Shown here: piece by piece, positions 30,364-64,000 of the stretch
Layout of the letters: the number at the start of each line of letters is the position of its first letter
Position numbering within the stretch: position 1 is the first letter of the stretch
Source: Romanomermis culicivorax
Taxonomy: Eukaryota > Nematoda > Enoplea > Mermithida > Mermithidae
NCBI GenBank assembly: GCA_963922205.1
Contig: CAWUHX010000136.1
Coordinates: forward strand, 620,001 to 684,000
Direction of reading: 5' to 3'
Length of the DNA: 64,000 nucleotides
Notes under the pieces: model-generated
What the model was told of the DNA's origin: nothing
Seen by the model: only the letters and a program-made list of their open reading frames with translations
Databases searched by the model: none
Translations under genes and position numbers: made by a program

Positions 30364-33300
30364 ATGGAAGAAAACCACACGCGTCGCTCTACTGCACTCG
30401 GTTACAAAAAAGGTTTCTACAATAAACTAGCGAATCCTGATAATCTAGAAATCCAAAATTTCGACTGCGAAAACACGAATCTACTGCTTCTCTACGAAGC
30501 AGATAAGCGTAATTTCGATTCACCGCAAATGTCGGCTCCGCTAAAAATGCGAAAAACTTCATGATCTCTATCTCCAAAAATCATCGAAAATCGAAAATTC
30601 AACTTTCTGAAATGGAAACCGAAGGAGACTGATCCTCGAAAAAACTTCGATAATGACGTGTATATCAATGTAATGCAAAAATGCAATGCTGAAATGATAA
30701 ATTTTCGTGGCGACACTACTAACGCATTAAGGGAAATTGTGACTATCGTGACTCAACAACGAAAACTTCTTGATGAGTTTAAAACTGAAATCGAAGGGAT
30801 GAGAGCTCAGAAAAAAGAGCTATCGAAACTGAATGTTCCTGAAATCAAAAATATCGCAAGACCTGTGAGCTCTTACGCTCAGTCTCTGAAATCGACAAAA
30901 CTGAAAAACGCAATCAGCGATCGAAAAAGTCAGCTTAGTTTTCGTGGTATAATCAACGATGATGATGATCTAATCATCCTGACACAAACGTTTGACCCCT
31001 CTAACGCGCTAAACTCTCAGATGAATTTTCCGTCTATCCCACCTTCTCAGGTGCATAGATCTTTCGCTGATGACGAAACGAGAATTAAGACTATCTGTAA
31101 AAAGATTGCTCCGCAAAAACTAGATAATTCGACCTGAAATCAACAAGTTTTGAAATTCTTCATTGCGCTCGAAAACAAGTTTGGCCTCGATGCCTCTGAG
31201 TATGTAAAACTTCACACGTTGCGTCGCTTGACTTGCGATGGTGCCCAGAACACCATACGAGATGTCCGATCATATGATGAAGCGAAACAGATTTTGATGT
31301 GTATGAATGCACCGAATTGCGACCAAGATACGCTCCAATGCGAGCTCCAGTCTATCGCTCCTTTCGAAACTGAAGATCCATCAGCTTTCTTAAATCGAAT
31401 CAGTACCTACGTACATCTACTGTACTATGACAAAAGCGCTCAGTATCACCATAGAAAAGTCATCACAACTTTTCTTTGGAAAATGCCGGAAATTTACAGA
31501 GTCTCGATTGACGCAAGTACTCTAGAAACGATCACTGACTTAGCTATAGCCGTCGCCAAAGTTCAGAAAATTCAGCGAGTGAATAAACAGTGGACTGTGA
31601 GAGTAGAACAACCTATACTGGTTAATACACTTGAAAACCTGTCGGAAGAGCAACCAGCTCAATCGCATTTCAGAGATGATTCGAAACCTCGCTTCAGAGA
31701 TAACTATCAATCCCGAAATAGAGATGACTCTAGACAGCGAAATACTGTCCAGTTTCAAGAAAATTCGACTCTAATGAAAATGAAAAAGTTCAAGGAAAGC
31801 GTGAAACGAGTCCTAGAAAAGTTCGGAATCCGAGAAAATACGCAAAACGCTAATAATTTCGAGAATCAAAGATCACGATTCGATCGAGGAATGAGTCCAA
31901 ATTTCCCGAATAGAGAAAACATTCCTATACGGGATTTCTCTCAAAATCGTAATTTTCAATGAAATCAGTCAGGTGAATGACCCCCAAAATATTGCACCTA
32001 TCATGGTCAGTGTAAGCACGACAGCTCCAAATGCTATCAGTTGAAACCACAGGCTTCTCAGCCTCGGCAACAGCAACCGAATCATCAATGGCAAAATAAC
32101 CATAATTGGCGTCCTCGTTTTCAACAAAATATGCGTAACTGCACGCTCAATCAGAATCAAAATTTTGACCGAAATAACCGATTTTTCAATCGCGATAATC
32201 GAAACTATCAGAGAGATGTTGCAAACATTTCTTTGTGCGATTCCGAATCCCGACAAGAAAAGATAATTGAAAAGCATTACTACTATCCGATGAATAACTC
32301 ACAGTCTGTACAGACTCAGCTAACTTCTCCAAAATCTTCGCAACAAGTTTTGTCATCAGAAACCAAAATGGTGTTTAACTCACCTAAACCTTTTGTCCCG
32401 ATGAAGCCGACGACTAGTACAGCATATATGCTTGAACCGACAGAGACGTCTAAAGCTACAAACTTCTTTGTTGCTCCCAGAATCACAGATTTCACAATCG
32501 AAAAACCTACTGAACCATGGATCGCGAGATCTAGCGTGTATCGAATCAAAGAATGTTCGCAAAAAGATATCAAACTTCTGAGCTTATACGCTCCTACTCG
32601 TGCTTTTCATATCGATGCTGAAATCGGAAAAACCAAAACGAAAGCATTGATCAATACCGGTGCTCAATGTTCAGTCATTTCCTCATGTCTAGCTCAATGC
32701 TCTTTGGGGATTGACTATGATACGTTAGAAACATCCGCTCAGATAAAAGTAGCCAATGGTGCTATCGTCAATGCCCTAGGTCCGATAATCTTCAAAATCA
32801 ATTCATCTTTCGGAACGCATCTAGTACGATGCTGGATTCTACCTACCACAGGAGAGCAATGCCTCCTAGGAACCGATTTCCTAGTACATCCAAGCATTCG
32901 AGCCGTAATAAACTTTCGCGAAAATTTCATCAGAATCGGAGACGTTCAGCAAGAACTAAACCTAGTTTTGAAACTGATTGAAAAAGCGCCCTATGATGAA
33001 GTATTTTCAAATACTTCTATGGGACAAAGTCAAACCCAAATCGACAGATTGCTACTGATTTTGAATATCTCATCATGCTATGTAGAATGGAATTGTCAAA
33101 CCTGGGTTAATGGGAGAATCTTCCCTTTCACAAACGAAAGCTTCAAAAGCGTTATAGTTCAACCCGTGAACTTCGGAAAAGAAAACTGCGAATATCCGAT
33201 CAAACTAGCGATAATCAACATAACCAAAGGCAAATGTCCACTATTATTTGTCAATAATAGTGCAAACGGTATTCATCTGCAACTTAACCAGCTCATCGCT

Positions 33301-33846
33301 GAGGTTAAATTCAGACTCGAAGAATCCAAAATGACTGTCGCATCGCTAAGCAATCAAGAAGAAGACTATGAACCAGCAACGTTGGTTAAAGATCAGTCAA
33401 CTATATCGGAAGAAGAAAAACTTCAACTCGCTCTCGAAAAAATGACTGAAAAGTTGAATATCAACAATGAAGATAGAAAAATCACTATCAAAGTCTTCAA
33501 GCAATATCGCGATGTCTTTAGTCTCCCTGGAGATGAGCCTACTCTCACTCACGAGTTAACAGTCTCTATAGACACTGGTGATGCAAAACCAGTCGCGAAA
33601 CACTACTATTGTGCGCTGATCAAACAGAGACCAATGGTACGACAGAGGCGAATTCCTCTACACATTGCTGAACGTGATAAATTGAATTCCAAAATTGCAA
33701 AAAGGGTTAGCACAATTGACACCAGACAATCTCAGAAAGTCTCGCTTTTGCAAATAAAACCGTATATGCCTCGAACAGCATTCGAAATTTTTAACGCGCA
33801 AGTCAGTGGTCCTCCACAACTGACTAGTCACGCGCTACTGCATTGA
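30364..33846 (+). pseudogene. Gag-protease-(RT start) frame with TGA interruptions
   Basis: One reading frame stays open over about 1160 codons except for TGA at 30562, 31135, 31960 and 31978; no TAA, TAG or frameshift occurs before its end. It codes for a Gag with capsid-like helices (31150-31700), an Arg/Asn-rich tail and a Gypsy-type zinc knuckle (about 31990-32040), then a retropepsin-like domain at about 32600-32950 with GTDFLVHPSIRAVI. The catalytic Asp of the D-T-G motif is Asn (AAT at 32653-32655). RT begins with DVFSLPGDEPTLTHEL (about 33510-33610) and is cut off before any catalytic motif. It is inactive as it stands. Confidence 0.85.
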
Positions 33847-38223: not shown

Positions 38224-40232
38224 TCTATGAATGAATGAATGAAGAAGATTTATTACCTGTCAGGCGAAATATAACACAAGAAAAGAAAAAAAAGGTTAAA
38301 ACGCGAGAACAAACAATTAAAATGAAATAAGAAAATGAAGAAAAGTTTCGAAAACTCAATCCACGGCTACTTCAAAACGACAAATACAATATCGCAGCGA
38401 AAATATGTGCTACAGTAAACAAGTTAATGACGGTAATAGGAAGCGCAGGTTACATATTTGTAACAGGCTAACGCACTCCCCCGAGATAATCAGAAAAATC
38501 AATCTTAGAGATTTTCGTTTTGAATGTGTGTAAATTGGAAGAACTAAGAACTTCAGCTGAAAGTTCATTCCAAATATTAATGTACCTGTTGGAAAAATCA
38601 TATAATCTAATATTTGTTTTAGCTTTACCTGTTTTGAGTTTGTAGTCATTTTTACGACGGGTGGACTCGAAATTACTGCTAATAAAGAAGTCCGATTTTT
38701 GCAGACAGGATTGGCCTTTAATAATTTGAAACATCATGCATAAGGCGGCACGTAGTCGGCGTATTTCTAAGCTATCAAGGCATAGCTTAGTTAAACGCTC
38801 ATCATATGAAAGGATAGACCCAAAACCACATATTCTTTTTGTGAATCTTCTCTGAACTTTTTCAATGAGATTTATGTCAGAGGCATAGTAAGGGTTCCAA
38901 ACAGTTGAACAATATTCTAGCAGGGGTCTAACATAAACAGTAAAGGCGCGTACAAGGTTAGAAGTATCATGGGAAGTAAAGGTTCTAATTATCAAAGAAC
39001 TTAAGCTAAAGGCTTTCTTGGTAATTGATGCTATGTGATCTCTAAAACTCAAGTTTTGGGATATAAGTACGCCCAAGTCTCTGACATATGGGTTTTCACC
39101 TGGAATTTCAGACAATCCTAAATTGTAGGGGACCTTTGGATTTGCATGGCCCATATAGAGAATAGAACTTTTTTCAGCCGAAATTTCGAGGTGCCATGTT
39201 TTAGACCAATTGAAAATCTGATCAAGATCATCTTGAAGAGTTTTACATTGTGTGGAGGTGTTAAAAATTTTCACATCATCTGCGAAAAGATAGACATGGG
39301 ATTTTAAAGTATCAGGGAGGTCGTTTATAAACAAGAGGAAAAGAGTTGGACCAAGAACACTACCCTGGGGGACACCACTGCTTACGTCTGATGTTAGGGA
39401 AAATTTGTTGTTAATGCAGACTTTTTGAGTGCGATTTGAAAGGAAGGCGATGATCCAATTCGCAAGAAAACCACAGATACCATAGTTTTTCAACTTTAGA
39501 GCAAGCTTACTATGGGAGACAGAGTCAAAAGCTTTCTTAAAATCAATGTAAATCAAATCAATGGAAGATCCTGAATCAATAAGTTTCGTCCATGAATTTT
39601 TGCATTTGAGCAACTGTGTTTCACATGACTTTTTTGGCAAAAACCCAAACTGAAAGGGAGATAATAGAGAGCTTCTCTTAAGGTAATCTAAAATAGAAGA
39701 GTTAATAATGCTTTCCATGACTTTACAAGCAATACAACAAAGAGAAATTGGTCGGTAATTGGAAATCAATGAGGAATCACCTTTTTTGTATACTGGGATT
39801 ACATTTGCAGTTTTCCATATAGATGGTAATGCGCCAGATCTAAAAGAAACCTCAAAGATATGAGAAAGTGGGTCCGCCAAACAATTGGATAGTTTTTTCA
39901 TAAAATAGGCACATAACCCATCAGGACCCAAGGCAAGAGATGGATTCAGTTTACGAAGAGCAGCACGAACTAGCTCAACAGAAAATGATGAATTGGAGAT
40001 TTCAGACATAGTTCTTTTGGGGAAAAGAGGCACAGAACCATTATCATTGGTAAAGACTGATGTGAAATAATTATTGAAAAGTTCGGCCTTTAGATCTTCA
40101 TCAGAAATAATTTCATTACCTATACAAATTGGGGGAATAGCTCTATTTGATTTGATTTTGGAATTTACAGAATTATAGAAACTTCTGAGATCAGATTTGT
40201 CAATAAGTTTCTTTTCAATGTCGATTTGATGC
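38224..40232 (-). mobile_element. 5'-truncated CR1/Jockey-like LINE
   Basis: It runs from the junction with the 0.9-kb repeat near 40232 to a 3' tail made of TTCA units (38224-38242 on the plus strand as TGAATGAATGAA). The 5' part with ORF1 and endonuclease is missing. The RT frame is open to the truncation point. Confidence 0.85.
38468..40033 (-). CDS. Non-LTR reverse transcriptase, open frame (LINE ORF2 C-terminal part)
   Basis: The frame holds 521 codons from the first Met and continues upstream in frame to about 40232 (SFYNSVNSKI, EDLKAELFNNYF). RT blocks in order are NYRPISLCCIACKVMES, FGFLPKKSCETQLL, catalytic YIDFKKAFDSVSH, SGVPQGSVLGPTLF and YLFADDVKIF, followed by the thumb-like RDLGVLISQNLSFRDHI and the C-terminal EYCSTVWNPYYA block common to CR1/Jockey-type LINEs. 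The catalytic Asp residues are present. The endonuclease is not included, so the protein would not be a complete ORF2. It ends GGVR with TAA. It is the only LINE frame here without lesions. Confidence 0.9.
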   Translation of the reverse strand: MPLFPKRTMSEISNSSFSVELVRAALRKLNPSLALGPDGLCAYFMKKLSNCLADPLSHIFEVSFRSGALPSIWKTANVIPVYKKGDSSLISNYRPISLCCIACKVMESIINSSILDYLKRSSLLSPFQFGFLPKKSCETQLLKCKNSWTKLIDSGSSIDLIYIDFKKAFDSVSHSKLALKLKNYGICGFLANWIIAFLSNRTQKVCINNKFSLTSDVSSGVPQGSVLGPTLFLLFINDLPDTLKSHVYLFADDVKIFNTSTQCKTLQDDLDQIFNWSKTWHLEISAEKSSILYMGHANPKVPYNLGLSEIPGENPYVRDLGVLISQNLSFRDHIASITKKAFSLSSLIIRTFTSHDTSNLVRAFTVYVRPLLEYCSTVWNPYYASDINLIEKVQRRFTKRICGFGSILSYDERLTKLCLDSLEIRRLRAALCMMFQIIKGQSCLQKSDFFISSNFESTRRKNDYKLKTGKAKTNIRLYDFSNRYINIWNELSAEVLSSSNLHTFKTKISKIDFSDYLGGVR

Positions 40233-45655: not shown

Positions 45656-46900
45656 AACACACTTCCTTGAGGAACACCACTAATTATTGTAGTTGCAGTA
45701 GAAATGGTATTACTTAGTTTTACACATTGAGTTCTATTTGTAAGGAAGTTGCAAATCCAATTCATTGTGAATTTCTCAGTTTTATATCCTTGTAGTTTTT
45801 GTAAGAGCTTTGAATGTGAGACAGTATCAAATGCTTTCTTAAAATCGATGTATACAACATCAACAGGAACTTGATTATCCAACTTCTTAACCCACTTAGT
45901 TTTACATCCAAGAAGTTGTAAGACACATGATTTATTTTTTCTGAATCCAAACTGCCCACTACTGAATAAGGCATTATCTGTCAAGATGACTTACAATATC
46001 CTTATTAATTGTTCCTTTCATGATTTTGCATGGTACACTACAAAGTTATATGGGCCTGTAGTTTTCAACTTTGCTACAGTCCCCTTTTTTGAAGATTGGA
46101 ACAATGTATGATTTTTTCCATAAATCAGGCAATGTACCAGTCCTATAAGAAACCTCAAAGATAATACTAAGAGGTTCAGCAAGAACAAGGTATAACTTTT
46201 TCAGAAAGTAGGCGCACAGACCATCAGGTCCAAGGGAAAATGTAGGTTTTAGATTTTTCAGTGCCAACAAAACTCCCATGAAATCAAATTTAATTGACTT
46301 AAGATACTCAAATCCTTTGCCAGGAAAAGGAGGAATTTTTCCGTCATCAACAGTAAAGACGATTGCAAAATATTTGTTGAAAATACCACATTTGTCGAAG
46401 TCACTACTAACTTCAATATTATGATAATGCAATGTCGGGATCAGGGCCGTATTTAGAGGGGGGGCGGGGGGGCGGTAGCCCCCCCTGTCGTTGTAACGAA
46501 AAATTTTTTTCCAGCCCTTGTTGTAATAAATAGCAGTTGGTGGAAACTAGTGACACTGACGTTCATATTACCTATTCAAATATCCTTGAATTTTCATTCT
46601 AAAACTTTAAATTAAATTATTTTTTCAGAGTAGCATTTTAAAAATATCAACTATAAATTATAATGAAACGTAGCTTAGAACAGTTTGGTTTTCAATCATC
46701 AAAACGAACGGCTCAAAATGAATCGATAGCAGCACCTTTTGAAGAAAAATATGCCTTATTAAACCTTCAACTCACATATGTCGCTACACTACGCTATATT
46801 TTCTTGACACTTCAAAATTGTCTATATTTTTGAAGTCGCCCCCCCTATCAAAAATTCCTGGATACGGCCCTGGTCGGGATCATTTCTCGCTTTACAGTTG
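45646..46900 (-). pseudogene. LINE RT fragment interrupted by a hAT element
   Basis: It codes for FGFRKNKSCVLQLL, YIDFKKAFDTVSHSKLL and SGVPQGSVFG (45646-45984), then, with one frameshift, LKPTFSLGPDGLCAYFLKK and LPDLWKKSYIVPIFKKGDC (46046-46432). The RT stops after motif B, where low-complexity sequence starts. The hAT insertion lies in its upstream part. Confidence 0.75.
46442..46872 (+). mobile_element. Non-autonomous hAT element, 431 bp, TSD GTCGGGAT
   Basis: The ends CAGGGCCGTATTTAGA and TCCTGGATACGGCCCTG share 11 inverted bases, and GTCGGGAT is duplicated exactly at 46434-46441 and 46873-46880. A short frame starting at 46663 (MKRSLEQFGFQSSKRTAQNE) looks like the N-terminus of a hAT/ZMYM-type transposase, followed directly by RYIFLTLQNCLYF-like end sequence. 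The central transposase is deleted. Confidence 0.9.
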
Positions 46901-50461: not shown

Positions 50462-51605
50462 ATGGTAAGGCTGACTGAACTGAGGTTGAGAAAATTCGCA
50501 AATCAAGTTATATTTCTGCGCAATGTTTTTTTGGGTACAGTTTATTTCCCTAAAATTTGCTCACGCTGTCTATCGTTCGTTTTAGTCTTGGATTGGACTA
50601 GGAGATAATTTGGGGGTAGCGCCGAGCCAGCGCATCCACCCATTGAATAAAATGATTATGCATATCAGTGTTAACTGGAAAGGATTATATGATCATAGGG
50701 ATATATTTTAGATTAGATTCATTCTTTTGTTTTCAAGTTTGATAGTTTCGGTGCTATTTTCAGCTCGTTTTGGTTCTTGGTGATTTGCACATTCCGCATC
50801 GATGTCACAATTTGCCGAACAAATTTCGAAAGTTGTTAGTACCCAATAAAATACAGCATATTCTTTGTACAGGAAATTTATGCACAAAAGAATCATTTGA
50901 TTATTTAAAGTCGTTAGCCAGTGATGTTCATGTCGTTAGGGGAGATTTTGACGAAGTAAGCGGAGTTGATGTTGGATGCGGCATTTTATGTATAGTAGTA
51001 GATTCGCCTCTAAGATTTAGCTCTTGTTATATTCGATCGAGTTACGTAACGTTTTTAGGGCACGAATTATCCCGAAACGAAAGTCGTGACTGTCGGGCAA
51101 TTTCGCATCGGGCTTTGCCACGGTCATCAACTTGTGCCGTGGGGTGATTCGGAAATTTTGGGCTTGTTACAGCGCCAATTGGACGTCGATATTATGGTTA
51201 CGGGCCATACGCACAAGTTCGAGGCGTTCCAACACGACGGAAAATTTTTCATCAATCCAGGATCTTGCACTGGCGCCTACAGCGCGTTAGACACGTAATT
51301 CAAGCGTATGCATACAAACGCTTACACAGGACCGTGTTTATATTCGATTTTGACAGTGGCAGACAGTAATCTCCGTCAAAAATGACATTATATTCTAAAA
51401 AATCGAATTACCATTTTAAAATTTAGCTCATTCTCGTGGAAACACCACTTTACCGTTATTCTTAACTGTCTCGTATCTCTTTAGGAACGTCGTACCATCA
51501 TTCGTATTGCTCGACGTTCAAGCGTCTAATGCGATAGCTTACGTCTATGAGCTGATAGACGACGATGTGAAAGTTGAAAAAATTGAGTATAAAAAACAAG
51601 CATAA
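50462..51605 (+). CDS. VPS29: VPS29, retromer subunit with metallophosphoesterase fold, four exons
   Basis: VPS29 is a retromer core subunit that binds VPS35 and works in endosome-to-Golgi and recycling transport. Exons are 50462-50464 (only the ATG, donor GTAAGG), 50764-50955 (starts [14 protein letters not shown], ends GDFDE, donor GTAAGC), 51059-51294 ([15 protein letters not shown] to YSALDT, donor GTAATT) and 51485-51605 ([12 protein letters not shown] to EYKKQA and TAA). The total is 183 residues, against 182 in human. The phosphoesterase-fold motifs GDLH (7-10), GDFDE and GHTHKFEAF are present. An exon 1 coding only the initiator Met matches the known human gene organisation. I see no lesion; the gene should be functional. 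It lies alone between repeat-rich flanks, about 1.5 kb from the retroelement that follows. Confidence 0.96.
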
Positions 51606-53095: not shown

Positions 53096-53108
53096 CGAAA
53101 TATGAGCC

Positions 53109-54002
53109 TGTAACGACCAGTTTTGAGTGAGGTACTTTACTTCTCAACCAACGGCGTTACGGCGGGGCAAATACGGGGCAGGGCGAACGGTTACAACAAC
53201 AACGGTTAATTCGACGGTCGCTTGAACGTCGACAAACAAAACGCGCTTCGAATAAAAACGGATGGGGGCCTCGGTTTAAATGCTTTCGAATAGTCGGCCG
53301 CTTGCAAATGTATAAAGACGGGGCGAACGCGGATCAAAAATAAAACGATACCCGAATAAGAACCAGAATGAGAATGACGAAAATCACGCTTTGCTTCTTC
53401 TTTTATACGGCGATTTTGGCCACTCCCTGGACGCTGCGGGAGGTCGAGCTTCTGTCCATCTTCTTCCGCCAATCGTCGTTTCCGGCTACGCTTTTTATGC
53501 TTTCTTAGTTACGCCTCTCTAACGCTTTTCTGGTACCGTATGCTTTCTGTGCTTCACTTGCTTTCTACGGTGGGCTTGGCCACACCTCTGTGCTTCTGTG
53601 CATGCTTCCTGTATCGGTTTCTCTGTATACACATGTTTTGTGGGGCCGCCGCTACTGTTACACTTGAGACTACTGTACGGCGGGGCTTCTACATATTTTA
53701 CTGTGTGCAGGTGTTGTTTACGATTTTTACTGGGGATTACGGTAGCTGTGGAATGTGTAGTTTAGTGTAGATTCTAGGGGAACAGCTGCCGTTTGTGCAA
53801 ATTAATTAGGGCATCTTAATTGGGCTACCGGGGTGTGAACGGATCAAAATAAAGTACTTCACGTAATTTTGTAGGAATGTTTGGGTGTGAATCCCAGACA
53901 TCCTTGAGACATAAAATGTGAAAAATAAAATAATATCTAATAAATGTCTATTACATACAGTATGCTACATATTTACAGTACTGCTTTAGCAGGTACGTTA
54001 CA
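53109..54002 (-). repeat. 3' LTR, 894 bp
   Basis: It is the same as the other LTR as far as I could read, including the short frames within it. Its ends are TGTAAC and GTTACA, a 6-bp perfect inverted pair. Confidence 0.96.
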
Positions 54003-54017
54003 TTTCCCTCCTTCCGG
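54003..54017 (-). promoter_or_regulatory. Polypurine tract
   Basis: Minus-strand GGAAGGAGGGAAA directly precedes the 3' LTR start TGTAAC. It lies between the stop codon of the polyprotein and the LTR. Confidence 0.8.
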
Positions 54018-54033
54018 AGTTGAACGTCCTCGT

Positions 54034-57000
54034 TCAAGGCTTTCGAGGTTGAGGAGGGGTGGGGGTAGATTCGTTAGTTGCTTTCCGAGGGTAGAAAGGG
54101 GTTGTCTCGTTTACATGCACGGTAAATGTAATATTCTTATGGGGGTGTTTGAGTGTAACGTTGGGGTACATGAAATTTGTAACTGTATAGGGACCGTTTT
54201 GGCGAGGGAGGAATTTGGGAGTCAACCCTTGTTTACACGAATGATTTTTATAAAGAATAAGATCACCTGTCTTGTAATGTATGTTCTGAGCATGCTTGTT
54301 ATACTGACGGGTATAGTGGGCTTGGGCTTTTTGCAAACTTTTCTGCACAGTTGAGAGGGCTTCTGTAAAATGCGATTTTACACGAAGGGCGTAATCATTT
54401 AAATCAACCATGTAGGATGTGGGGAAAAAATTTAAAGCTGCATCTGACGGCAGATTAGCTTGCCTACCGTGGAGTAATTCAAATGGGGGATACGAAGTGC
54501 TATCATTTTTATGAATGTTGATCGAAAAAACGGCATACGGGAGATAAGTATCCCAATCAGTGTGATTTGAATTGATGTACATGCGAATACGGGTGGCTAG
54601 GGTTTGGTTGCAACGCTCAACTTCTCCATTGGCAATGGGATGATATGGGGTAGTGTGAATTTTCTGAGTATTGCATAAACTGGTGATCCGTGAGAAAAGA
54701 TCGGATACGAAATCGGTGCCACGATCACAATGGATGATTTTTGGGGACCCATGACGACAAACAATTTTGGTTACGAATAGCTTGGCAATAGTGGCTGCAG
54801 TGATGTCAGGGGTCGGGAATGCCTCTACATACTTTGTGAAATAATCGATGAAAACGACAATGAATCGGTTGCCGTCTTCAGTGAGGGGTAACGGTCCCAT
54901 GCAATCAACACCAACTCGATCAAATGGGCCAGTTGGCTGAATTGGTACCAAGTTTGCATGTACTTTGTGTCTAAGAGCTTTCTGTGTCTGGCATGGGTGG
55001 CAAGTTTTGCAGTACCGTTTGATATCACGGCTCATTTGGGGCCAAAAGTATTTCTGTCTGAGCAAGTGTAAAGTTTTCCGGGCTGCAAAATGACCTGTGA
55101 ATTTGCTGTCATGATGTGAGGCGATGAGGTGCTGGACTTGGGACTTGGGAATGTATAGTTTTGCCTGTTTGTCGACTATACGGAAGAGGATGTTTTGATG
55201 CACTGCAAACTTGATAAGGGTAAGGGGGTGTTTTTGGGCGATTTTTGCTAAAATACTTTTGACAGTTGGATCAGTGCGTTGGAGTTCGGCAAAGTTTTTC
55301 TGTTGCTCTTCTTGTTCAGTTGCTTCGGCTTCCAAAACTGAATTGATAGTTGATATTTCGGGGCGGGTTTCTAATTGCTCAATATCAAAGGATTGCTTTG
55401 CTGTCTGTGAGGGGAATCGAGAAACTGCATCTGCGTTGCGGTTAGCAGTGCCTTTCTTGGGTCGAATGTCTAGCTGAATGCCAGAGAGGGCTAATCCCCA
55501 ACGGGCAATGCGAGGGGACGGGTTTTCCTTTTGTAAGACTGCCTGAACTGCTGTGTGGTCAGTGTGTACAATAACATGTTGCTGGAAAAGATAGGGGCGG
55601 AAATACTTGACAAATTCGACTACTGCAAGGGTTTCTAACTCAGTGATCGGATAGTTGCGTTCTGCGGGTTTCAATGTGCGGCTCCCAAAAGCAATGGGGC
55701 GATCCTGACCTTTACTATCTAGCTGACTGAGAATGGCGCCGATGCCGAGTTTTGAGGCGTCAGTTTGCAGAATAAACGGTTTGGTGAAATCTGGATGCTG
55801 CAGGATTGGGGCATGGATGAGTAATTCTTTTAGCTTAGTGAATGCATTTTGCTGTTCAGGGCCCCAGGAAAATTCTGAGTTCTTTTTGAGTAGCGATGTG
55901 AGTGGGCTAGAAACTTGAGAGCAATTTGGGATGAATCTACGATAATATGAGGGTAGGCCAAGGAATGACTTAACTTCTTTTGAGCTTTTGGGCGTGGGTA
56001 TGTCATAGATTGCCTGTACCTTATGGGGGTCTGGTGAAATGCCTTGCTGGGAAATGACGTGGCCTAAGTATTGGACTTGGGGCTGGCAGAATTTGCATTT
56101 TTGGATGTTTAGCTTAAGGCCTGCTTGTGAGAATCGGGCAAGAATAGTGTCTAAACGTTCCAGCATTTGGGCATGGGAGTCTGCGAATACTAAAACATCG
56201 TCGAGGTATACAAGGCATGTGTTCCATTGCAGACCCGAAAGAATAACATCCATTAACCTTTGGAATGTGGCTGGGGCATTGGTGAGTCCAAAAGGGAGGT
56301 AATTGAATTGATACTGGCCAGCTGAGCAATTAAAGGCCGTTTTTTCTCTGTCTGCTTGTGCTATGGGAATGGAATAGTATGCATTGGATTGGTCAAGGGA
56401 CGTGAAATATTTCATTCCACGAAGGGTGTCTAGAATTTCGTCTATCCGGGGCAGGGGGTAGGTATCTTTTTTGGTGACTTTGTTGAGGCCTCTAAAATCA
56501 ATGCATAAACGATGGCCTCCGTCTTTTTTGGGAACTAAAACTGTGTTGGTACACCATGGAGAGTTGCTTTGGCTTATGACACCTGCTGCTGCGAGTTGCT
56601 CAACTTCTGCTTGTATGATTTGCTTTTCTTTTGGGGAAGTCCGATAAAGTTGTCTACGTACTGGTTGGGAGCCATTGGTGTCAATTGTATGTGAAACGAG
56701 GGTGGTTCTGCCTACGTCCATTTTGGATTTAGCATATAATGTAGGGTACTTCGATAGGGCGCGTAGGAGTTGCATTTTCTCGGTTTCTGTGAGGTCACTG
56801 GAGGTCAAATTAACATTTTCTTTTAACCATGTGAATGTATCAAAACGGTTGGGCTGGTTTTGCGTGGAAGGGGTTACATTAGCGGGAGCATTTTGTTTTG
56901 GGATGTAACATGAGACTGTACCAATGCATGTTCCAGGATAAAGAATTTGGGCTGTTTCTTGTGTGTTTAAGACGGATATGCGTATGCGACTGTTTTGATT

Positions 57001-60000
57001 TTCAGAGATGCAAGCTGCGAAATGGACTTTGGGATTCTGTTTGGGTTTTGGGGTGAATTCAAGCTGTTTGACCTGTAAGTAGGATTTGGGCAAGGGGACA
57101 GTGAATTCGGTTACTGTACGAGGTGGTAATTCTAATTTCTCATCTAAATAAGTTCCACCACGAGTTGAAAGAGGGCTATATTCTAGGCCATCACAAGGTA
57201 GTATAACATTGCCAAATTTGACCTGTGATTTTTGATTGTTGATAGTGTATTCCGAAAATCGACTGAGAAAGTTTTTGCCTAGAAGGATGTCTGCTGTGCA
57301 ATCTTTTTGGACATGGACCATGATTGTTTCCTGGATGGTTTGGGCTGTCACTGTGACAAAAGTGGTTCCTACAAAGTGAATCGGGAGATTATTTGCTGCT
57401 TTTGCTTGGACTAGCGGGGGTTTCATGTCTAACTGTAAAAGTTGAGCGACTCGGGAATCAATGAGTGAGTAAACTGCACCAGTGTCAATCATGCCTTTTG
57501 TCATTAATTTGCCGTTAAGTGTGATTGGGATGTGAGGGGTATGTTTTTCAGTTACATTCTGGGGTGGCTTGTTTGATGCAGATTGCTGAATTTGATTAAT
57601 GAGTTCGATTGCAGGAGTTCGGGGGGTATCAATATCGACAAGGACGTATTTCTGCTGTGTTTGCGCCCCACGACGATTAGCTAATTCTAAGAGAGCATGG
57701 CCGAATGATGGGGGAATGGTCTCATGTAAATGTCTGTTGTTTGAAGGTATTTCGTATGCATGTTTGTTTGTGGCATGATGCTTTGGAGAGGGGAAATATT
57801 TTCGAAGAACGAGGAACGAATAAAAGACGCCTGCAATAACTACAGTAATAACGGCTAGATTTATAATGATTTGCAGGGGTCCTTTGAGTAAATTGTTTAA
57901 TCCGTCCGTGAGACTTTGGGTGGTACCGGTTATTACATGTTCTATGCCTTGACCGGCGCCAGAGAGTGTATTTCCGAGTGTTTGGCCAGTGCCTGAGATC
58001 ATGTTGTAAACTGTATCGGAATTGAGAGACATTTGGGCGGTGTAGTTGACGAGTTTTTGGACAATGTTTTCGAGTGTGTGAGTTTTGTAAATGTATTGTT
58101 TCAAAAAGAGTAAGTTGGTTGAGATAGTTGCAAGTTGATCATGAAAAATGGCGGGTGTATTGAAATGGAAGAGGGAGAAATTTTGGTTCCAGACAATTTC
58201 TAAGGGTAAGTTTGTAACATGGGGGGATCCTGTTTCACTGACCCATGTATTATTCTGTTTGTAAAGGGCTACATGCATGTGATGGCAGTCAACGGTTTGC
58301 GAAAAAGGGGTCAAATCGTTGCCTCCTGGATTTGAAAACATGAGTTCAGTTCCTACGAGAATGGGCAAAAGTTTGTAGCATGTTTGGTTGATTTTGTGGT
58401 TGTAAAAGATTTTAGATGCATTTACTTGTTTACAGGGCCAGACTGTGAGGGCTTCTCCTGTGAATTCTGCTATGATGTCGGTTCGCTGTAGGAATGCACG
58501 CGCTCCAAGGGTTGCATCAAGACGCAAGATTTGCCATACGAGATCAAGGTGACGCTGTGCCTGTCTGCATAATTCATTCCATACATTTTTGAAATTTTGA
58601 ATTTCGAATTCCTGTATTTTGTCTGCTAGATAGTTTAGTTTTGCATTAATGGGTTCAAAATCATCAAAATCGTATAATGTAGTATGAGTTTCGTTGGTTT
58701 TTGGGGTTAAAAATGCATTACGATGTGGGGTGCTTTTGTCTAATTGTACGATAATGCCTTGTTCGGTTAGAATGCTATCTTGGATTTCTGGGCAATTGGG
58801 GTTCGAAAAAACTGTATTTTTGACCGAGAATGCACCTTGTAGTTCTTCTATTATCATGTGTGTTTGCGTGAGTTTGATGGGATGTGTATTTTTGTATTCG
58901 AAAGGGCATAAGTTTTCAAATGCTGTTTCATTCCAGATAATAGATCCGTCGGCTGTGACACAATGACCTGATGTCGGTTTGCATGACCCTAGGTCGCCTA
59001 ATGTACCTGTCATAGATTTTCCATTCCAAGATGCTATTTGTCCTATTTCTATGATGACGTTAGTGACTGAGGTACAATGGTCTGTACAACACCATGTGTA
59101 TTCTACGCTTAAGGAGTTATTTGTTGACCAAAATCCTGGTTGGGTTTCGTATAATTTTTGACCGTTGTGTTCTTTGTCTATAACGATTGCCTTACAAACA
59201 TGTGGGGTTAGATTTTGCATTTCGGTTTGGTCGAAGACAATACCTTTTGATCCAAAAAATCCTGTATTAGTACAAATTTTGCGTTTGCGAACACTGCATT
59301 TGTATGCGTCTGTAATGTGGGGCTTAGTGGAGGGGATATAGATTTTTCCAAATGTTTGTACGGGTTTGTCTACTGTGGAAGGGGGCATGCATGATACAAG
59401 TTTTGGTATGCTGACTGAGTGACCGCTCAATGAAGTTCCACACATCTGAAATTGGGCACTACACGATGTGGGGATTATTATACAAAGAAAAATACAAAAC
59501 ATCGGCCAATGTAGTGTTTTATTGGAGGCGGCGGGGTACTGTGTTTTTTCGCTCTGTTCGATTTGGCGTGGCGCTTTTTGGTGTTGTCGTTTTGCGATTT
59601 TGGGCTGGGGGGGTGGCCGGTTTGAAATCTGAACGGTCTGTAAAACTTTAGAAGTTGAGTTATGGGATGGGGTTTGGACTTGCTTACTTGTGGGGGTCGG
59701 TAGCAATGTTTGGCGGGGGCGGAATCGGTAGGGTTCAGGGGTCAGACCGTGTAAGAGGGACAATAAGTTGCGACCTGTTTTCGACGGGGTGTCAGGGGCG
59801 GTGGGCGGCGTTGTGTCTTGCTTTCGGGGGATCTTGTAGCCTACGGGGATGGTGGGCGGCGATTTTTCGATTTTTTCGGCTTCAGGCGTAGGGGGTGGTG
59901 ACATGGCGCACCAATCGGGTACGTCCAGATCAAGGACGTATTCGTCACTGCGGCGGTGGGTGTTGGGCATGATAGTTCCTAAAGTAGTCTGAGGGCCGTT

Positions 60001-61263
60001 AGTAATGGCGGGTAATTTTGAGTAAAATGCGGGGTCGTCAATGTCCATGAGGGGTTGGGGTTGCCTGTACTCAATGCAATTTTGAATATTACGACTCTGC
60101 TGATTTGGACAATACCTGCTTGTATGACCTCTCTGCTTGCATATAAAACATTGAAAATTGGAGTAGGATTTTGAAGGGCAGTTATCTGATCTATGTCCTG
60201 TTTGGGAGCAGTGGATGCATGGGCTTTTACAATCACGTGTACTGTGATTATTACGGAAACAGATTTCACATGATTTTCGGGTGCCTACTGATTTACAATT
60301 ACGAGCTACGTGTCCGATTTGTCCACACTGGAAGCATGTGGGTTGCCTAGGGGTGGTATTGTTCCTGTGAGCGTTATTCCTGCTGAAAGTATTGTTACTG
60401 AAATTGTTGTAGCTACTTTGTTGTGGGGGTTGAGGTTTTTGTTTGATCTGCAACTGTAAATCTTTTACTTGTTGTTCTAACTGATGCAAAAGATCCTGTT
60501 GGTCTGTATTTCTGGTTAGGGAAAAGATGGGTTCGGGTTTTGGGGGTATAAATGGAAGGGTGTTAGATTTCAGCTCATTTCTAAGGATTTGTTGTTCAAT
60601 GTAAGCTGCTTCGTCTGACATTTCTTTTAGAGTTGCGAACCTTCTATACTTAATTGCTTCCCTGATTTCGTTTTGCATGCCTTCTACAAAGAGGGGTTTT
60701 ATGATCATTTCTCGTGCGTCTGTGTTAAAATTAGGGTAGGCGAGGGTTGCGAGATGTTCTAGATCAAATAAGAATTCCGTTACTGTTTCTGATCGCTTTT
60801 GTTTTCTTTCGCGTAAGAATTGTTGATGTAGCTCATTATCTCTATTGTTTGGGAAAAATGCCTGTAATGCGACTTTATACTGCTCGTATGTGTGGGGAGG
60901 GTTTTCAGAATTTGCTAAACTTTTGAATTTTGCTAACGCGGCTCCTCCTAAATGAATTTCTAAACATGCCAACTTTAACTGTACGTCTGTATCTTTCATG
61001 CCTTGGAGTGCCATGAATTGTTCTAATCTTTTGTTCCATTCACCAAAATGTTGGGTCACGCCGCCCGTGAATACTGTAGGTTTCGCGTAGAAATTGTTTG
61101 CCATGTTATTACGAATGTTTGCTGTTCTTAGATCGTCTATTAGGGTAGGGTTTACTGTATTCTGATTCAATTGTGTGCGTAGGGTACGAAAATGTTCTGA
61201 AAACAAATCGTTTATCTGTTCTCTAACGATTTCTCCTAAATGATCTTGCGTTTGGTGGGTCAT
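54034..61263 (-). CDS. Gag-glycoprotein-protease-RT-RNase H-integrase polyprotein, 2409 aa
   Basis: One frame codes for the complete element. Gag capsid region is about 55-230, with four CX2CX4HX4C zinc knuckles at 310-323, 332-345, 349-362 and 372-385. A Pro/Thr-rich linker (400-580) leads to a signal-peptide-like segment (586-602), a Cys-rich ectodomain and a transmembrane helix (about 1130-1152). Retropepsin has D1260-T-G in MIDTGAVYSLID. RT has YLDD at 1686-1689 and PFGLTNAPATFQRLM; RNase H has TDAS (D1835), E1875, D1902 and D1945. Integrase has the H/C zinc region (H2058, C2085, C2088), the D2120, D2180, E2216 triad with 35 residues between the last two, and GPYTV near 2357. The usual order puts Env after Pol; here it is between Gag and protease. 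All catalytic residues appear present. Start chosen as the first Met after the leader. Confidence 0.95.
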   Translation of the reverse strand: MTHQTQDHLGEIVREQINDLFSEHFRTLRTQLNQNTVNPTLIDDLRTANIRNNMANNFYAKPTVFTGGVTQHFGEWNKRLEQFMALQGMKDTDVQLKLACLEIHLGGAALAKFKSLANSENPPHTYEQYKVALQAFFPNNRDNELHQQFLRERKQKRSETVTEFLFDLEHLATLAYPNFNTDAREMIIKPLFVEGMQNEIREAIKYRRFATLKEMSDEAAYIEQQILRNELKSNTLPFIPPKPEPIFSLTRNTDQQDLLHQLEQQVKDLQLQIKQKPQPPQQSSYNNFSNNTFSRNNAHRNNTTPRQPTCFQCGQIGHVARNCKSVGTRKSCEICFRNNHSTRDCKSPCIHCSQTGHRSDNCPSKSYSNFQCFICKQRGHTSRYCPNQQSRNIQNCIEYRQPQPLMDIDDPAFYSKLPAITNGPQTTLGTIMPNTHRRSDEYVLDLDVPDWCAMSPPPTPEAEKIEKSPPTIPVGYKIPRKQDTTPPTAPDTPSKTGRNLLSLLHGLTPEPYRFRPRQTLLPTPTSKQVQTPSHNSTSKVLQTVQISNRPPPQPKIAKRQHQKAPRQIEQSEKTQYPAASNKTLHWPMFCIFLCIIIPTSCSAQFQMCGTSLSGHSVSIPKLVSCMPPSTVDKPVQTFGKIYIPSTKPHITDAYKCSVRKRKICTNTGFFGSKGIVFDQTEMQNLTPHVCKAIVIDKEHNGQKLYETQPGFWSTNNSLSVEYTWCCTDHCTSVTNVIIEIGQIASWNGKSMTGTLGDLGSCKPTSGHCVTADGSIIWNETAFENLCPFEYKNTHPIKLTQTHMIIEELQGAFSVKNTVFSNPNCPEIQDSILTEQGIIVQLDKSTPHRNAFLTPKTNETHTTLYDFDDFEPINAKLNYLADKIQEFEIQNFKNVWNELCRQAQRHLDLVWQILRLDATLGARAFLQRTDIIAEFTGEALTVWPCKQVNASKIFYNHKINQTCYKLLPILVGTELMFSNPGGNDLTPFSQTVDCHHMHVALYKQNNTWVSETGSPHVTNLPLEIVWNQNFSLFHFNTPAIFHDQLATISTNLLFLKQYIYKTHTLENIVQKLVNYTAQMSLNSDTVYNMISGTGQTLGNTLSGAGQGIEHVITGTTQSLTDGLNNLLKGPLQIIINLAVITVVIAGVFYSFLVLRKYFPSPKHHATNKHAYEIPSNNRHLHETIPPSFGHALLELANRRGAQTQQKYVLVDIDTPRTPAIELINQIQQSASNKPPQNVTEKHTPHIPITLNGKLMTKGMIDTGAVYSLIDSRVAQLLQLDMKPPLVQAKAANNLPIHFVGTTFVTVTAQTIQETIMVHVQKDCTADILLGKNFLSRFSEYTINNQKSQVKFGNVILPCDGLEYSPLSTRGGTYLDEKLELPPRTVTEFTVPLPKSYLQVKQLEFTPKPKQNPKVHFAACISENQNSRIRISVLNTQETAQILYPGTCIGTVSCYIPKQNAPANVTPSTQNQPNRFDTFTWLKENVNLTSSDLTETEKMQLLRALSKYPTLYAKSKMDVGRTTLVSHTIDTNGSQPVRRQLYRTSPKEKQIIQAEVEQLAAAGVISQSNSPWCTNTVLVPKKDGGHRLCIDFRGLNKVTKKDTYPLPRIDEILDTLRGMKYFTSLDQSNAYYSIPIAQADREKTAFNCSAGQYQFNYLPFGLTNAPATFQRLMDVILSGLQWNTCLVYLDDVLVFADSHAQMLERLDTILARFSQAGLKLNIQKCKFCQPQVQYLGHVISQQGISPDPHKVQAIYDIPTPKSSKEVKSFLGLPSYYRRFIPNCSQVSSPLTSLLKKNSEFSWGPEQQNAFTKLKELLIHAPILQHPDFTKPFILQTDASKLGIGAILSQLDSKGQDRPIAFGSRTLKPAERNYPITELETLAVVEFVKYFRPYLFQQHVIVHTDHTAVQAVLQKENPSPRIARWGLALSGIQLDIRPKKGTANRNADAVSRFPSQTAKQSFDIEQLETRPEISTINSVLEAEATEQEEQQKNFAELQRTDPTVKSILAKIAQKHPLTLIKFAVHQNILFRIVDKQAKLYIPKSQVQHLIASHHDSKFTGHFAARKTLHLLRQKYFWPQMSRDIKRYCKTCHPCQTQKALRHKVHANLVPIQPTGPFDRVGVDCMGPLPLTEDGNRFIVVFIDYFTKYVEAFPTPDITAATIAKLFVTKIVCRHGSPKIIHCDRGTDFVSDLFSRITSLCNTQKIHTTPYHPIANGEVERCNQTLATRIRMYINSNHTDWDTYLPYAVFSINIHKNDSTSYPPFELLHGRQANLPSDAALNFFPTSYMVDLNDYALRVKSHFTEALSTVQKSLQKAQAHYTRQYNKHAQNIHYKTGDLILYKNHSCKQGLTPKFLPRQNGPYTVTNFMYPNVTLKHPHKNITFTVHVNETTPFYPRKATNESTPTPPQPRKP
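57784..59511 (-). other. Env-like membrane glycoprotein domain inside the polyprotein (aa 585-1160)
   Basis: The segment opens with MFCIFLCIIIPTSCSAQ (signal peptide; Met588 at 59502), then about 525 residues with numerous Cys, a WCC motif at 724-726 and nine N-x-S/T sequons (684, 715, 778, 857, 948, 959, 1004, 1028, 1073). All nine fall between signal peptide and membrane helix. A helical stretch at 894-944 ending TGEALTVWPC and a Gly-rich pre-membrane region (1084-1129) resemble class III fusion glycoproteins of the herpes gB/chuvirus type. That family call is from recall and is less certain than the membrane topology. It ends LAVITVVIAGVFYSFLVLRK. Its ectodomain would be lumenal, with Gag and Pol on the cytosolic sides. 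Confidence 0.75.
60109..60336 (-). other. Array of four Gag zinc knuckles
   Basis: Four CX2CX4HX4C knuckles lie within 76 residues (CFQCGQIGHVARNC, CEICFRNNHSTRDC, CIHCSQTGHRSDNC, CFICKQRGHTSRYC). They would bind RNA in the nucleocapsid. Most Gypsy Gags have one or two. Confidence 0.93.
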
Positions 61264-61487
61264 TCTTGGTTTACGATGGGGTTTCTGCTTAAATGCTTCA
61301 ATTTTTGCTTCACGCTGTATTCGTTTAAATGTATCGCTTAATGCTTCGTTGGAGGGGGTTTCCAGTTTGCTTAATACGAATACCGTCTTACTGTAGGAAA
61401 TGATTACTACTGTATTACTAATGCTTCTAAACGCCCGGATAAGAGTACACCTAACTGGGGGCAGGGAGTTCCACTGGTTAACGTAAA

Positions 61488-61505
61488 GGTACGGTCACCA
61501 AAATA
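61488..61505 (-). promoter_or_regulatory. Primer-binding region
   Basis: Minus-strand TATTTTGGTGACCGTACC starts at the LTR edge. It is the same 18 bases as at 30289-30306. The TGG that pairs with tRNA CCA lies five bases inside the LTR edge. Confidence 0.75.
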
Positions 61506-62399
61506 TGTAACGACCAGTTTTGAGTGAGGTACTTTACTTCTCAACCAACGGCGTTACGGCGGGGCAAATACGGGGCAGGGCGAACGGTTACAACAACAAC
61601 GGTTAATTCGACGGTCGCTTGAACGTCGACAAACAAAACGCGCTTCGAATAAAAACGGATGGGGGCCTCGGTTTAAATGCTTTCGAATAGTCGGCCGCTT
61701 GCAAATGTATAAAGACGGGGCGAACGCGGATCAAAAATAAAACGATACCCGAATAAGAACCAGAATGAGAATGACGAAAATCACGCTTTGCTTCTTCTTT
61801 TATACGGCGATTTTGGCCACTCCCTGGACGCTGCGGGAGGTCGAGCTTCTGTCCATCTTCTTCCGCCAATCGTCGTTTCCGGCTACGCTTTTTATGCTTT
61901 CTTAGTTACGCCTCTCTAACGCTTTTCTGGTACCGTATGCTTTCTGTGCTTCACTTGCTTTCTACGGTGGGCTTGGCCACACCTCTGTGCTTCTGTGCAT
62001 GCTTCCTGTATCGGTTTCTCTGTATACACATGTTTTGTGGGGCCGCCGCTACTGTTACACTTGAGACTACTGTACGGCGGGGCTTCTACATATTTTACTG
62101 TGTGCAGGTGTTGTTTACGATTTTTACTGGGGATTACGGTAGCTGTGGAATGTGTAGTTTAGTGTAGATTCTAGGGGAACAGCTGCCGTTTGTGCAAATT
62201 AATTAGGGCATCTTAATTGGGCTACCGGGGTGTGAACGGATCAAAATAAAGTACTTCACGTAATTTTGTAGGAATGTTTGGGTGTGAATCCCAGACATCC
62301 TTGAGACATAAAATGTGAAAAATAAAATAATATCTAATAAATGTCTATTACATACAGTATGCTACATATTTACAGTACTGCTTTAGCAGGTACGTTACA
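61506..62399 (-). repeat. 5' LTR, 894 bp
   Basis: It has TGTAAC...GTTACA ends and the same length as the 3' LTR. A TATAAAAG box reads on the minus strand at about 61805-61798, roughly 300 bp before the LTR end, a plausible promoter. Confidence 0.96.
61798..61805 (-). promoter_or_regulatory. Possible TATA box of the LTR promoter
   Basis: TATAAAAG on the coding strand of the element inside the 5' LTR. This is motif evidence only. Confidence 0.35.
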
Positions 62400-62403
62400 A
62401 GCC

Positions 62404-64000
62404 ATGTCACATTAAGTAGATCTTGTGATCAGTCACATTGATGGGAAAACCCATACCATATCTCATAGAAAATACGGCCATGCCACTGTAAGTGACATGC
62501 TGTGACCCCGTTAGGTGGCTCGTTAATGTATTTGTTTCGGGAACCTAACCCAGCTGGTACTACTACAGGAAAACCTATAGTCTACCTCAGCCTTGTCCTA
62601 GGGTTCGGCTGTAAAATAATGGACAATGCGGCCGGGTCAGGGGTGGCAATCCCTAGTCCTCATTTACTGAGAATGAGGGACTGTGCCATTCATGGAATGG
62701 CTTACTGTAGGGGACCCGATTGTCAATCTAAATCCCCTTATTGGCCCTGACCTTAAGGGTTCAAGGGCTTTTCTAACTGAGGGTACTCTCAAGGGAAAAC
62801 TGACTTAAGGAGGATTTCCACAAATATACCCTCAACAATAATAACCCCTGAGAGGACTCACTTAGTCCTCTTCTCAAAGTACTCGGCGCTGGGGGACGAC
62901 GGGGAAGTGGGTATGGTAATCCGAAAGCGATTCAGCATGGAGGGTTGGCAAATGCGAGTCAGCGAGCAATGACGGGGGTTCTCCATCAACAGGCCACGGG
63001 GTAAACGCTTAGGTTGGAATACAGTAACATATGAACCCAAGGGACACCAAAGGCCAATATGTAGATTTATTAAGAAAGGCAGCAGACACAGGCAAATATG
63101 CAAATTTATTATAAAAGATGCTGAGGAACCCTGAGTTGTAAGCTAAAAACGCAGGAGACGGTTTGGGCCCAGAAATGAGTGTGAAATTAAAGAAACAAGC
63201 CCTTTTAAAGGGCCCCGTAATCTACAGTATGCCTTGGGCGTAGCTAAGACACACCCAAGCTAACTTCTACAGCGGAAATCGCTGCAGAAGATGCCTATGG
63301 TCACATAGACATTTTCCAGTTCACTACATTAAGCATTGGGGTGAGTTTCACTCTCCATGCTAAACATATGAACCTCATCTAGAGAAAATTTCCAACTAGG
63401 CCTTTCATGTTGCTAAACGTTAAATAAAAGTGGGAAAATGAAAGAGAAATGAAACGCAAAAAGTGCACACAGAATTTGCATGTAAAAATATAAAAACAAA
63501 ACACAAAATTAATGTAAGCTACTGTAAAACAAAAAGTGGCAAAAAACATAACGAAAATGCATGATGTGAATCACCCGATGTTGGGCGAAATTCGTCGGCA
63601 CGTGACACCGAAGTCCTTCGAAAAAGGGGGTCCTCATCCTTGTATTGTTGAAGTTAATGCAGCATGTCTGTGGAGGTTAATCGTCCAAGTGGGTGTGATG
63701 GCGGGTGGTCAATGGTCCAATGGTTTTTCAGCGCGTTCTGACTCGTGGAGTTGTGTCAATGATGCATGGAGTTGCTCACGTCATATGATCAGTGTGGTCT
63801 GTTATGCATGGAGTTGCTGACGCCAATTGATCCATTTGGTAATGCATGGAGTTGCCATTTGTCGACTGTTTTGTGAGATCTGTAACAAGATCGAAAGAAA
63901 AATTTTAAGGGCAAGATGCAGGCTATCACACAGATGCGCCTGTGATATGAGGCAATAACCCTAGTTTAGATGCATTGATCCCTGCTCATTCTCTTCTTTT
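62404..64000. other. No recognised gene; short direct repeats near the end
   Basis: The frames found are short and lack motifs. TGCATGGAGTTGC occurs at 63763-63775, 63805-63817 and 63843-63855, with a decayed relative near 63744. The rest is non-repetitive within this window. Confidence 0.4.

What the first reader, a model, noticed from the sequence alone, without database searches (positions are those of the whole stretch)
54034..61263. Gag-Env-Pol order: a fusogen-like glycoprotein between Gag and protease in one 2409-codon frame
The frame runs through Gag, a complete signal peptide-ectodomain-transmembrane module, then protease, RT, RNase H and integrase without a stop. Retroviruses and env-bearing Gypsy elements known to me carry env downstream of pol, as a separate frame made from spliced RNA. 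Here it would be translated at Gag-Pol level. This might be an undescribed retroelement architecture.
Basis: partly seen in the sequence, partly recalled or inferred. Interest (0 to 1): 0.95.

Follow-up and report, generated by a model that had tools for sequence, protein, structure and literature searches.

The report
Retroelement with envelope before protease
A young, intact virus-like jumping element, perhaps in a nematode genome, carries its membrane-fusion envelope part between the capsid and enzyme parts of one long protein, whereas the relatives whose layout could be checked carry it after the enzymes or make it from a separate message.

Summary
Window 53109-62399 (minus strand) is a complete, young Ty3/gypsy-type LTR element: two identical 894-bp LTRs, TG...CA ends, a 4-bp target duplication and one open frame of 2409 codons. 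The order is Gag - signal peptide - Env ectodomain - TM - protease - RT - RNase H - integrase. The frame stops 31 bases before the 3' LTR. The Env is a Monjiviricetes-type (chuvirus-like) fusion glycoprotein. So Env-before-protease is inherited. The Gag-Env join is seen only in this copy. Most likely the polyprotein is threaded through the ER membrane: signal peptidase frees Gag, the TM leaves Pol in the cytosol, and protease frees Pol. A spliced Env-Pol message is a live rival. Ten searches of one open-access library listed no described precedent for this order (listings capped). Other copies in the genome could not be checked: 14 genome-search requests did not complete.

The parts
61506..62399 (-). 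5' LTR, 894 bp, TG...CA ends
   Evidence: blastn of the two LTRs: 894 of 894 identical, no gaps; termini read
53109..54002 (-). 3' LTR, 894 bp
62400..62403 (.). target-site duplication AGCC, copy 1
   Evidence: flanks read
53105..53108 (.). target-site duplication AGCC, copy 2
   Evidence: flanks read
61488..61500 (-). putative primer binding site beginning TGG, 5 nt inside the 5' LTR; no tRNA matched here
   Evidence: sequence; assignment is inference
54003..54015 (-). polypurine tract directly before the 3' LTR
   Evidence: sequence
54034..61263 (-). single open frame of 2409 codons, Gag-Env-Pol
60736..60957 (-). Gag capsid-like domain (Retrotrans_gag)
   Evidence: Pfam 25.3 bits against cut-off 24.1
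60109..60336 (-). four CCHC zinc knuckles
   Evidence: motif scan, four exact CX2CX4HX4C; zf-CCHC
59455..59502 (-). putative Env signal peptide, starting at an in-frame ATG; cleavage point by eye
   Evidence: hydropathy 1.71; translation
57883..59454 (-). Env ectodomain, 16 Cys all conserved in P0008
58177..58698 (-). Monjiviricetes_fusion (PF24664) match
   Evidence: 67.8 bits, E 6.6e-19
57808..57882 (-). Env transmembrane segment (limits approximate)
   Evidence: 19-residue hydropathy up to 2.40
57259..57528 (-). aspartyl protease, IDTGA and LLG motifs
   Evidence: PF13975 36.8 bits against cut-off 28.2
56053..56535 (-). reverse transcriptase, YLDD (match split over two of my pieces)
   Evidence: PF00078
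55483..55866 (-). RNase H
   Evidence: PF17919 / PF17917
54616..55152 (-). integrase: H2C2 zinc-binding domain, then core with D-D-35-E
   Evidence: PF17921, PF00665; motif positions
61390..61391 (-). candidate splice donor in the leader (97.4th percentile of GT sites on this strand)
   Evidence: scan with recalled nematode consensus
59629..59639 (-). two candidate splice acceptors (95.2nd and 93.8th percentile of AG sites) upstream of the Env signal-peptide ATG; no ATG lies between them and that ATG
   Evidence: sequence
59446..59447 (-). acceptor-like AATTTCAG (99.3rd percentile), right after the signal peptide

Best explanation
This is a young, intact Ty3/gypsy-type LTR retroelement (an endogenous retrovirus in the broad sense) whose captured Monjiviricetes-type fusion glycoprotein sits in frame between Gag and protease. 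Most likely mechanism: the full-length RNA is translated into one Gag-Env-Pol chain. The signal peptide after Gag directs part of the chains to the ER, where signal peptidase cuts Gag free. The ectodomain folds in the lumen and the TM stops transfer, so protease-RT-RNase H-integrase stay on the cytosolic side as the tail of Env. The element's protease then releases the enzymes and trims Gag. Chains that miss the ER remain cytosolic Gag-Env-Pol and can still supply Gag and Pol. The layout is like the capsid-glycoprotein-enzyme polyproteins of flaviviruses (recalled). Shown: the anatomy, intact motifs, young insertion, Env family, and inheritance of Env-before-protease in a second element. Inferred: translation as one chain, topology, both cleavages, fusogenic function.
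For: One 2409-codon frame. Domain order from Pfam. The two strongly hydrophobic stretches found bracket the Env ectodomain, so protease and the other enzymes would fall on the cytosolic side. 16 of 16 ectodomain Cys are conserved in P0008, which also keeps a TM before protease (hydropathy 2.67). P0008 has Env, protease, RT and RNase H in one frame with no stop after Env. Env and protease-RT diverged equally, 41% and 39%; RT end to past RNase H 50%. PF24664 is above its cut-off in 5 of 5 Env proteins. Identical 894-bp LTRs and 4-bp duplication. The frame ends 31 bases before the 3' LTR, so there is no other place for env.
Against: No transcript, protein or particle data. P0008 as predicted starts near mature Env, without a signal peptide (maximum hydropathy of its first 60 residues 0.27) and without Gag (no hit of the Gag piece), so the Gag-Env join is known only from this copy. 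P0008 was the only other Env-Pol fusion found in two searches tuned to long proteins (6748 and 7990 candidates scored). Candidate splice sites could make a separate Env-Pol message. A 19-residue stretch as hydrophobic as the signal peptide arises somewhere in 597 of 2000 shuffled ectodomains, so it counts by position rather than strength. N-glycosylation sites are not enriched (9 against a shuffled mean of 6.46, reached by 355 of 2000). Two AlphaFold runs failed (mean pLDDT 39.9 and 42.2), so the class III fold is not confirmed. Other copies in this genome could not be counted.
Confidence: 0.55

Rival explanations
1. Same element and same gene order, but Env is expressed from a spliced RNA: a leader donor near 61391 is joined to an acceptor near 59639 or 59630, and translation starts at the signal-peptide ATG (59502) to give Env-Pol. 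The unspliced RNA would mainly serve Gag and the genome.
For: Candidate donor and acceptors exist at the right places and no ATG lies between those acceptors and the Env ATG. Env of insect Metaviridae comes from spliced RNA (PMC12992720, passages). P0008 is predicted as a separate Env-Pol protein without Gag.
Against: The consensus used was recalled and is weak evidence; sites at the 94-97th percentile are numerous (3161 GT and 3166 AG sites scored). An unbroken Gag-Env frame would not be needed if splicing were the only route. With no stop after the TM, any Env would still carry Pol.
Confidence: 0.3
2. Env lies in an optional intron: splicing out Env gives Gag-Pol, retention gives Gag-Env-Pol.
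For: One donor-like site lies at the Gag end (59687, 98.5th percentile) and one acceptor-like site before protease (57587, 95.9th percentile).
Against: These sites differ in phase (donor phase 1, acceptor phase 0), so this join breaks the frame. No frame-keeping pair appeared at the 90th-percentile threshold in the two stretches scanned (59900-59400 and 57950-57500).
Confidence: 0.05
3. The env-like part is a one-off insertion in this copy, or the frame is an assembly chimera.
For: No other copy lies in the window, and other copies in the genome could not be searched.
Against: P0008 has the same order from a different source. Identical LTRs and target duplication. Codon usage of Env correlates with that of the other three pieces (0.69, 0.76, 0.66).
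Confidence: 0.02
4. The glycoprotein no longer acts as a fusogen but as a membrane anchor for Gag-Pol assembly within the cell (compatible with either expression route above).
For: No fusion data; fold not confirmed; sequons not enriched.
Against: 16 of 16 ectodomain Cys kept although only 41% of Env residues are identical, which suggests a folded, exposed ectodomain under selection.
Confidence: 0.1

Closest known systems
Dingle (Ty3/gypsy of the annelid Dimorphilus gyrociliatus, PMC7854359; passages seen)
   Same: Ty3/gypsy element with a herpesvirus gB-like Env
   Different: Its Env lies downstream of the integrase; here it lies between Gag and protease. Sequence relation of the two Envs not tested.
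Anakin (BEL/Pao elements of mosquitoes with a chuvirus glycoprotein, PMC7642597; passages seen)
   Same: Chuvirus-type glycoprotein captured by an LTR element
   Different: BEL/Pao rather than Ty3/gypsy Pol. The position of the glycoprotein within Anakin was not stated in the passages seen; the paper says that Roo, Tas and Cer-7 carry Env downstream of the polyprotein.
Errantivirus / insect ERVs such as ZAM (PMC12992720; passages seen)
   Same: Metaviridae with an Env having signal peptide, ectodomain and TM
   Different: Env-F, made from a spliced subgenomic RNA; here a Monjiviricetes-type Env in the Gag-Pol frame
Ty3 (closest solved structure of Pol)
   Same: Pol order and best PDB match, E 4.2e-80 over RT end to integrase
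   Different: No Env (recalled)
Cer1 of C. elegans (PMC10309623; passages seen)
   Same: Nematode Gypsy/Ty3 element with no stop between gag and pol
   Different: Its extra ORF lies after pol and is part of CERV, a nuclear RNA-export protein
Flavivirus-type polyproteins (recalled, not tested)
   Same: Capsid, then signal-led glycoproteins, then enzymes in one membrane-threaded chain
   Different: Unrelated positive-strand RNA viruses with no reverse transcription

Membership tests
Ty3/gypsy (Metaviridae) LTR elements | LTRs with TG...CA ends and 4-6 bp target duplication | tested here: met
   894-bp LTRs, TG...CA, AGCC duplication
Ty3/gypsy (Metaviridae) LTR elements | Pol order protease-RT-RNase H-integrase | tested here: met
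   Ty3 Gag-Pol is the best PDB match
Ty3/gypsy (Metaviridae) LTR elements | Gag with CCHC knuckles | tested here: met
   four CX2CX4HX4C
Ty3/gypsy (Metaviridae) LTR elements | RT placed within the family by a tree | not tested
   no reference set of RTs was at hand
Errantivirus (env-bearing Metaviridae) | Env downstream of pol | tested here: not met
   Env lies before protease; frame ends 31 bases before the 3' LTR
Errantivirus (env-bearing Metaviridae) | Env from a spliced RNA | not testable with these tools
   only candidate sites seen
Anakin (BEL/Pao with chuvirus glycoprotein) | BEL/Pao Pol | tested here: inconclusive
   Pol matches Ty3 best among solved structures and no Pao-specific Pfam family appeared (which families these are is recalled), but no BEL/Pao reference was compared
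Monjiviricetes fusion glycoprotein family (PF24664) | profile score above curated cut-off | tested here: met
   5 of 5 Env proteins, 37.6-67.8 bits against 27
Class III (gB-like) fusogens | gB profile match or gB fold | tested here: inconclusive
   PF00606 weak in 3 of 5, all below the cut-off of 43 bits; gB top PDB profile hit at E 0.078, none with Env alone up to E 1; models too poor
Chuviridae / Monjiviricetes viruses | RNA-dependent RNA polymerase and nucleoprotein genes | tested here: not met
   no such Pfam match in the four pieces up to E 1

The most novel reading that the evidence does not exclude
A lineage of animal Ty3/gypsy retroelements, old enough for its members to share only about 40% of Env and protease residues, has placed its envelope in the middle of the Gag-Pol frame and uses a membrane-threaded Gag-Env-Pol polyprotein, with signal peptidase splitting Gag from Env and the retroviral protease splitting Env from Pol. 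It thus makes an enveloped reverse-transcribing element without subgenomic RNA or frameshift.
Probability: 0.45. Interest if true: 0.9.

Novelty: new variant of a known kind. Interest (0 to 1): 0.8.

Why it matters
In the env-bearing retroelements whose layout I saw stated (Roo, Tas, Cer-7, Dingle), Env follows Pol, and Env capture is usually pictured as a 3' addition. An inherited Env-before-protease order would show another route to an enveloped retroelement. It could express Env without splicing, but it poses new questions: how Gag:Env:Pol ratios are set, and how enzymes tethered to the Env tail reach the particle. It would also give the host, perhaps a nematode, a likely intact and recently active env-bearing element with a negative-strand-virus-type fusogen.

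Tried and rejected
Rejected: one-off insertion and chimera (P0008, LTR identity, target duplication). Rejected as main reading: Env as an in-frame optional intron (phases do not fit).

Led nowhere: three viral-contig scans (66, 155 and 43 pattern stretches) and two genome-contig scans (88 and 35 stretches) gave no confirmed relative; each used only two short peptide patterns, and the tool says that records of the window's own genome may be left out. The third protein search, with P0008's Env, found only P0008 itself, and only the 7990 candidates sharing most words were scored. The PDB search with the Env piece found nothing up to E 1. Two structure predictions were too poor for a fold search, so none was run. 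Rfam and ARAGORN found nothing in the window. A bacterial promoter/terminator scan around the 5' LTR was uninformative. NCBIfam gave no match for Gag or Env and only below-cut-off matches for Pol. Ten literature searches were answered. Among the papers listed (25 of 248, 25 of 222, and the full 2, 2, 0, 0, 1, 1, 1 and 12) no title or abstract start describes Env between Gag and protease; the eight papers opened were seen in passages, one of them also in outline. The library lacks most subscription papers.

Not possible: copy number and other copies in the window's genome; DNA around P0008; scans of metagenome contigs (cap 0, not tried).

Full report
The thing itself. On the minus strand, the window holds one frame of 2409 codons at 54034-61263. 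It is bracketed by two 894-bp direct repeats, 53109-54002 and 61506-62399, identical at all 894 positions. They start TG and end CA and are flanked by the same four bases, AGCC. A purine run (54003-54015) precedes the 3' LTR, and a TGG-starting putative primer site lies five bases inside the 5' LTR (the tRNA was not identified). The stop codon is 31 bases before the 3' LTR, so there is no downstream env. No difference in 894 positions points to a recent insertion.

Domains. Pfam on four consecutive pieces gives, in order: Gag (Retrotrans_gag, 25.3 bits against a cut-off of 24.1; Ty3_capsid below its cut-off; CCHC); Monjiviricetes_fusion PF24664 (67.8 bits, cut-off 27); aspartyl protease and RT; RT end, RNase H, integrase zinc finger and core. 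Motifs are intact: four CCHC knuckles, IDTGA, YLDD, HHCC and D-D-35-E (what each motif means is recalled). Scanned piece by piece, the only two strongly hydrophobic stretches lie at the two ends of the Env piece. Among solved structures the RT-to-integrase piece matches Ty3 Gag-Pol best (E 4.2e-80), so I call it Ty3/gypsy-type; no tree was built and no BEL/Pao reference was compared.

Env family. The protein search with the Env piece found three relatives among 3691 candidates: a Romanomermis culicivorax protein (mermithid nematode), a protein from a MAG labelled Gammaproteobacteria (probably misfiled, my inference) and a JGI protein. A search tuned to longer proteins found one more, P0008, among 6748 candidates. 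PF24664 is above its cut-off in all five, counting the window's own. Herpesvirus gB (PF00606) is weak and below its cut-off in three of five (reporting limits E 1 for the window's, E 0.1 for the others). Borna G (PF06208) reaches its cut-off in one of the four relatives. A profile search of PDB put gB on top at only E 0.078. AlphaFold on five sequences failed twice. So: Monjiviricetes-type glycoprotein, well supported; class III fold, likely but unproven.

Is it a one-off? No. P0008 (1424 aa, JGI) reads Env-TM-protease-RT-RNase H without a stop. It aligns to the window's Env at 41% (aa 21-576 of the piece), to protease-RT at 39% and to the RT end, RNase H and beyond at 50%. All 16 ectodomain Cys are kept; the three Cys not kept lie in the signal-peptide part. 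The alignment of protease reaches back into the cytosolic linker after the TM, with a conserved patch there. Env and protease have thus diverged together from an ancestor with this order. Limits: P0008 starts near mature Env with no signal peptide and no Gag, and its DNA could not be read, so the Gag-Env join is known from this copy only. P0005-P0007 are fragments without context. A further search with P0008's Env found no third Env-Pol fusion.

How it works. In this copy no stop or frame change separates Gag, Env and Pol, and no frame-keeping intron around Env was found at the thresholds used. The signal peptide and TM would place Gag and all enzymes in the cytosol and the Env ectodomain in the ER lumen, a self-consistent topology. 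Hence the threaded polyprotein model, with two proteases of different origin. Not shown: any product. The rival is a spliced Env-Pol RNA: a leader donor (61391) and acceptors (59639, 59630) with no ATG before the Env start codon. A strong acceptor-like AATTTCAG at 59447 lies just after the signal peptide; joining there would leave the signal peptide out, and I have no explanation for it. The splice consensus was recalled, so these are leads.

Results against. The signal peptide is not exceptional by strength alone: 597 of 2000 shuffled ectodomains hold a 19-mer as hydrophobic. Glycosylation sites are not enriched: 9 against a mean of 6.46, reached by 355 of 2000 shuffles. The window's genome could not be searched.

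What is known. Env capture by LTR elements is well described: Roo, Tas and Cer-7 with Env downstream of the polyprotein, and Anakin with a chuvirus glycoprotein (PMC7642597, passages). A later survey found no clear capture of Jingchuvirales glycoproteins by Gypsy (PMC10084718, passages). Dingle is a Ty3/gypsy with a gB-like protein downstream of integrase (PMC7854359, passages). Insect Metaviridae make Env from spliced RNA (PMC12992720, passages). Cer1 has its extra ORF after pol (PMC10309623, passages). Bdelloid elements carry an ORF3 downstream of pol (PMC5408684, passages). Troyka has no Env (PMC12440569, outline with abstract, and passages). Ten answered searches listed no paper whose title or abstract start describes Env before protease; two of the listings were capped at 25 of 248 and 25 of 222. 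Hence a new variant of a known kind: the parts are known; the order and its probable expression strategy I did not find described.

Confidence. Anatomy as stated: about 0.97. Env-before-protease as an inherited order: about 0.93. Threaded single polyprotein: about 0.55. The host being a nematode is an inference from one Env match (Romanomermis, 53% identity over half the query).

Noticed in passing
window 30658-33846 (+): Three consecutive frames with an aspartyl protease match in the third (PF13975) and no Pfam match in the first two; looks like a second, different LTR-type element, broken or frame-shifted.
   Followed up: partly
window 38468-40033 (-): 521-aa frame with RVT_1 (E 2.1e-35), looks like a non-LTR (LINE) reverse transcriptase; a 128-aa frame at 46046-46432 (-) resembles its start by eye, though it has no Pfam match.
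   Followed up: partly
window 8368-8958 (-) and 50770-51147 (+): Host-like exons: protein-tyrosine phosphatase (E 4.8e-35) and calcineurin-like phosphoesterase (E 1.1e-6), perhaps VPS29 (name recalled).
   Followed up: partly
window 59446-59454 (-): AATTTCAG directly followed by ATG, close to the nematode splice acceptor consensus (recalled), lies almost exactly where mature Env should begin; P0008's predicted protein also starts close to this point. Unexplained.
   Followed up: partly
P0006: An Env relative filed under a Gammaproteobacteria MAG on a 1383-bp contig; probably eukaryotic DNA binned by mistake.
   Followed up: no
window 63755-63838: Two tandem 42-nt copies, 76% identical; Tandem Repeats Finder did not report them.
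   Followed up: no
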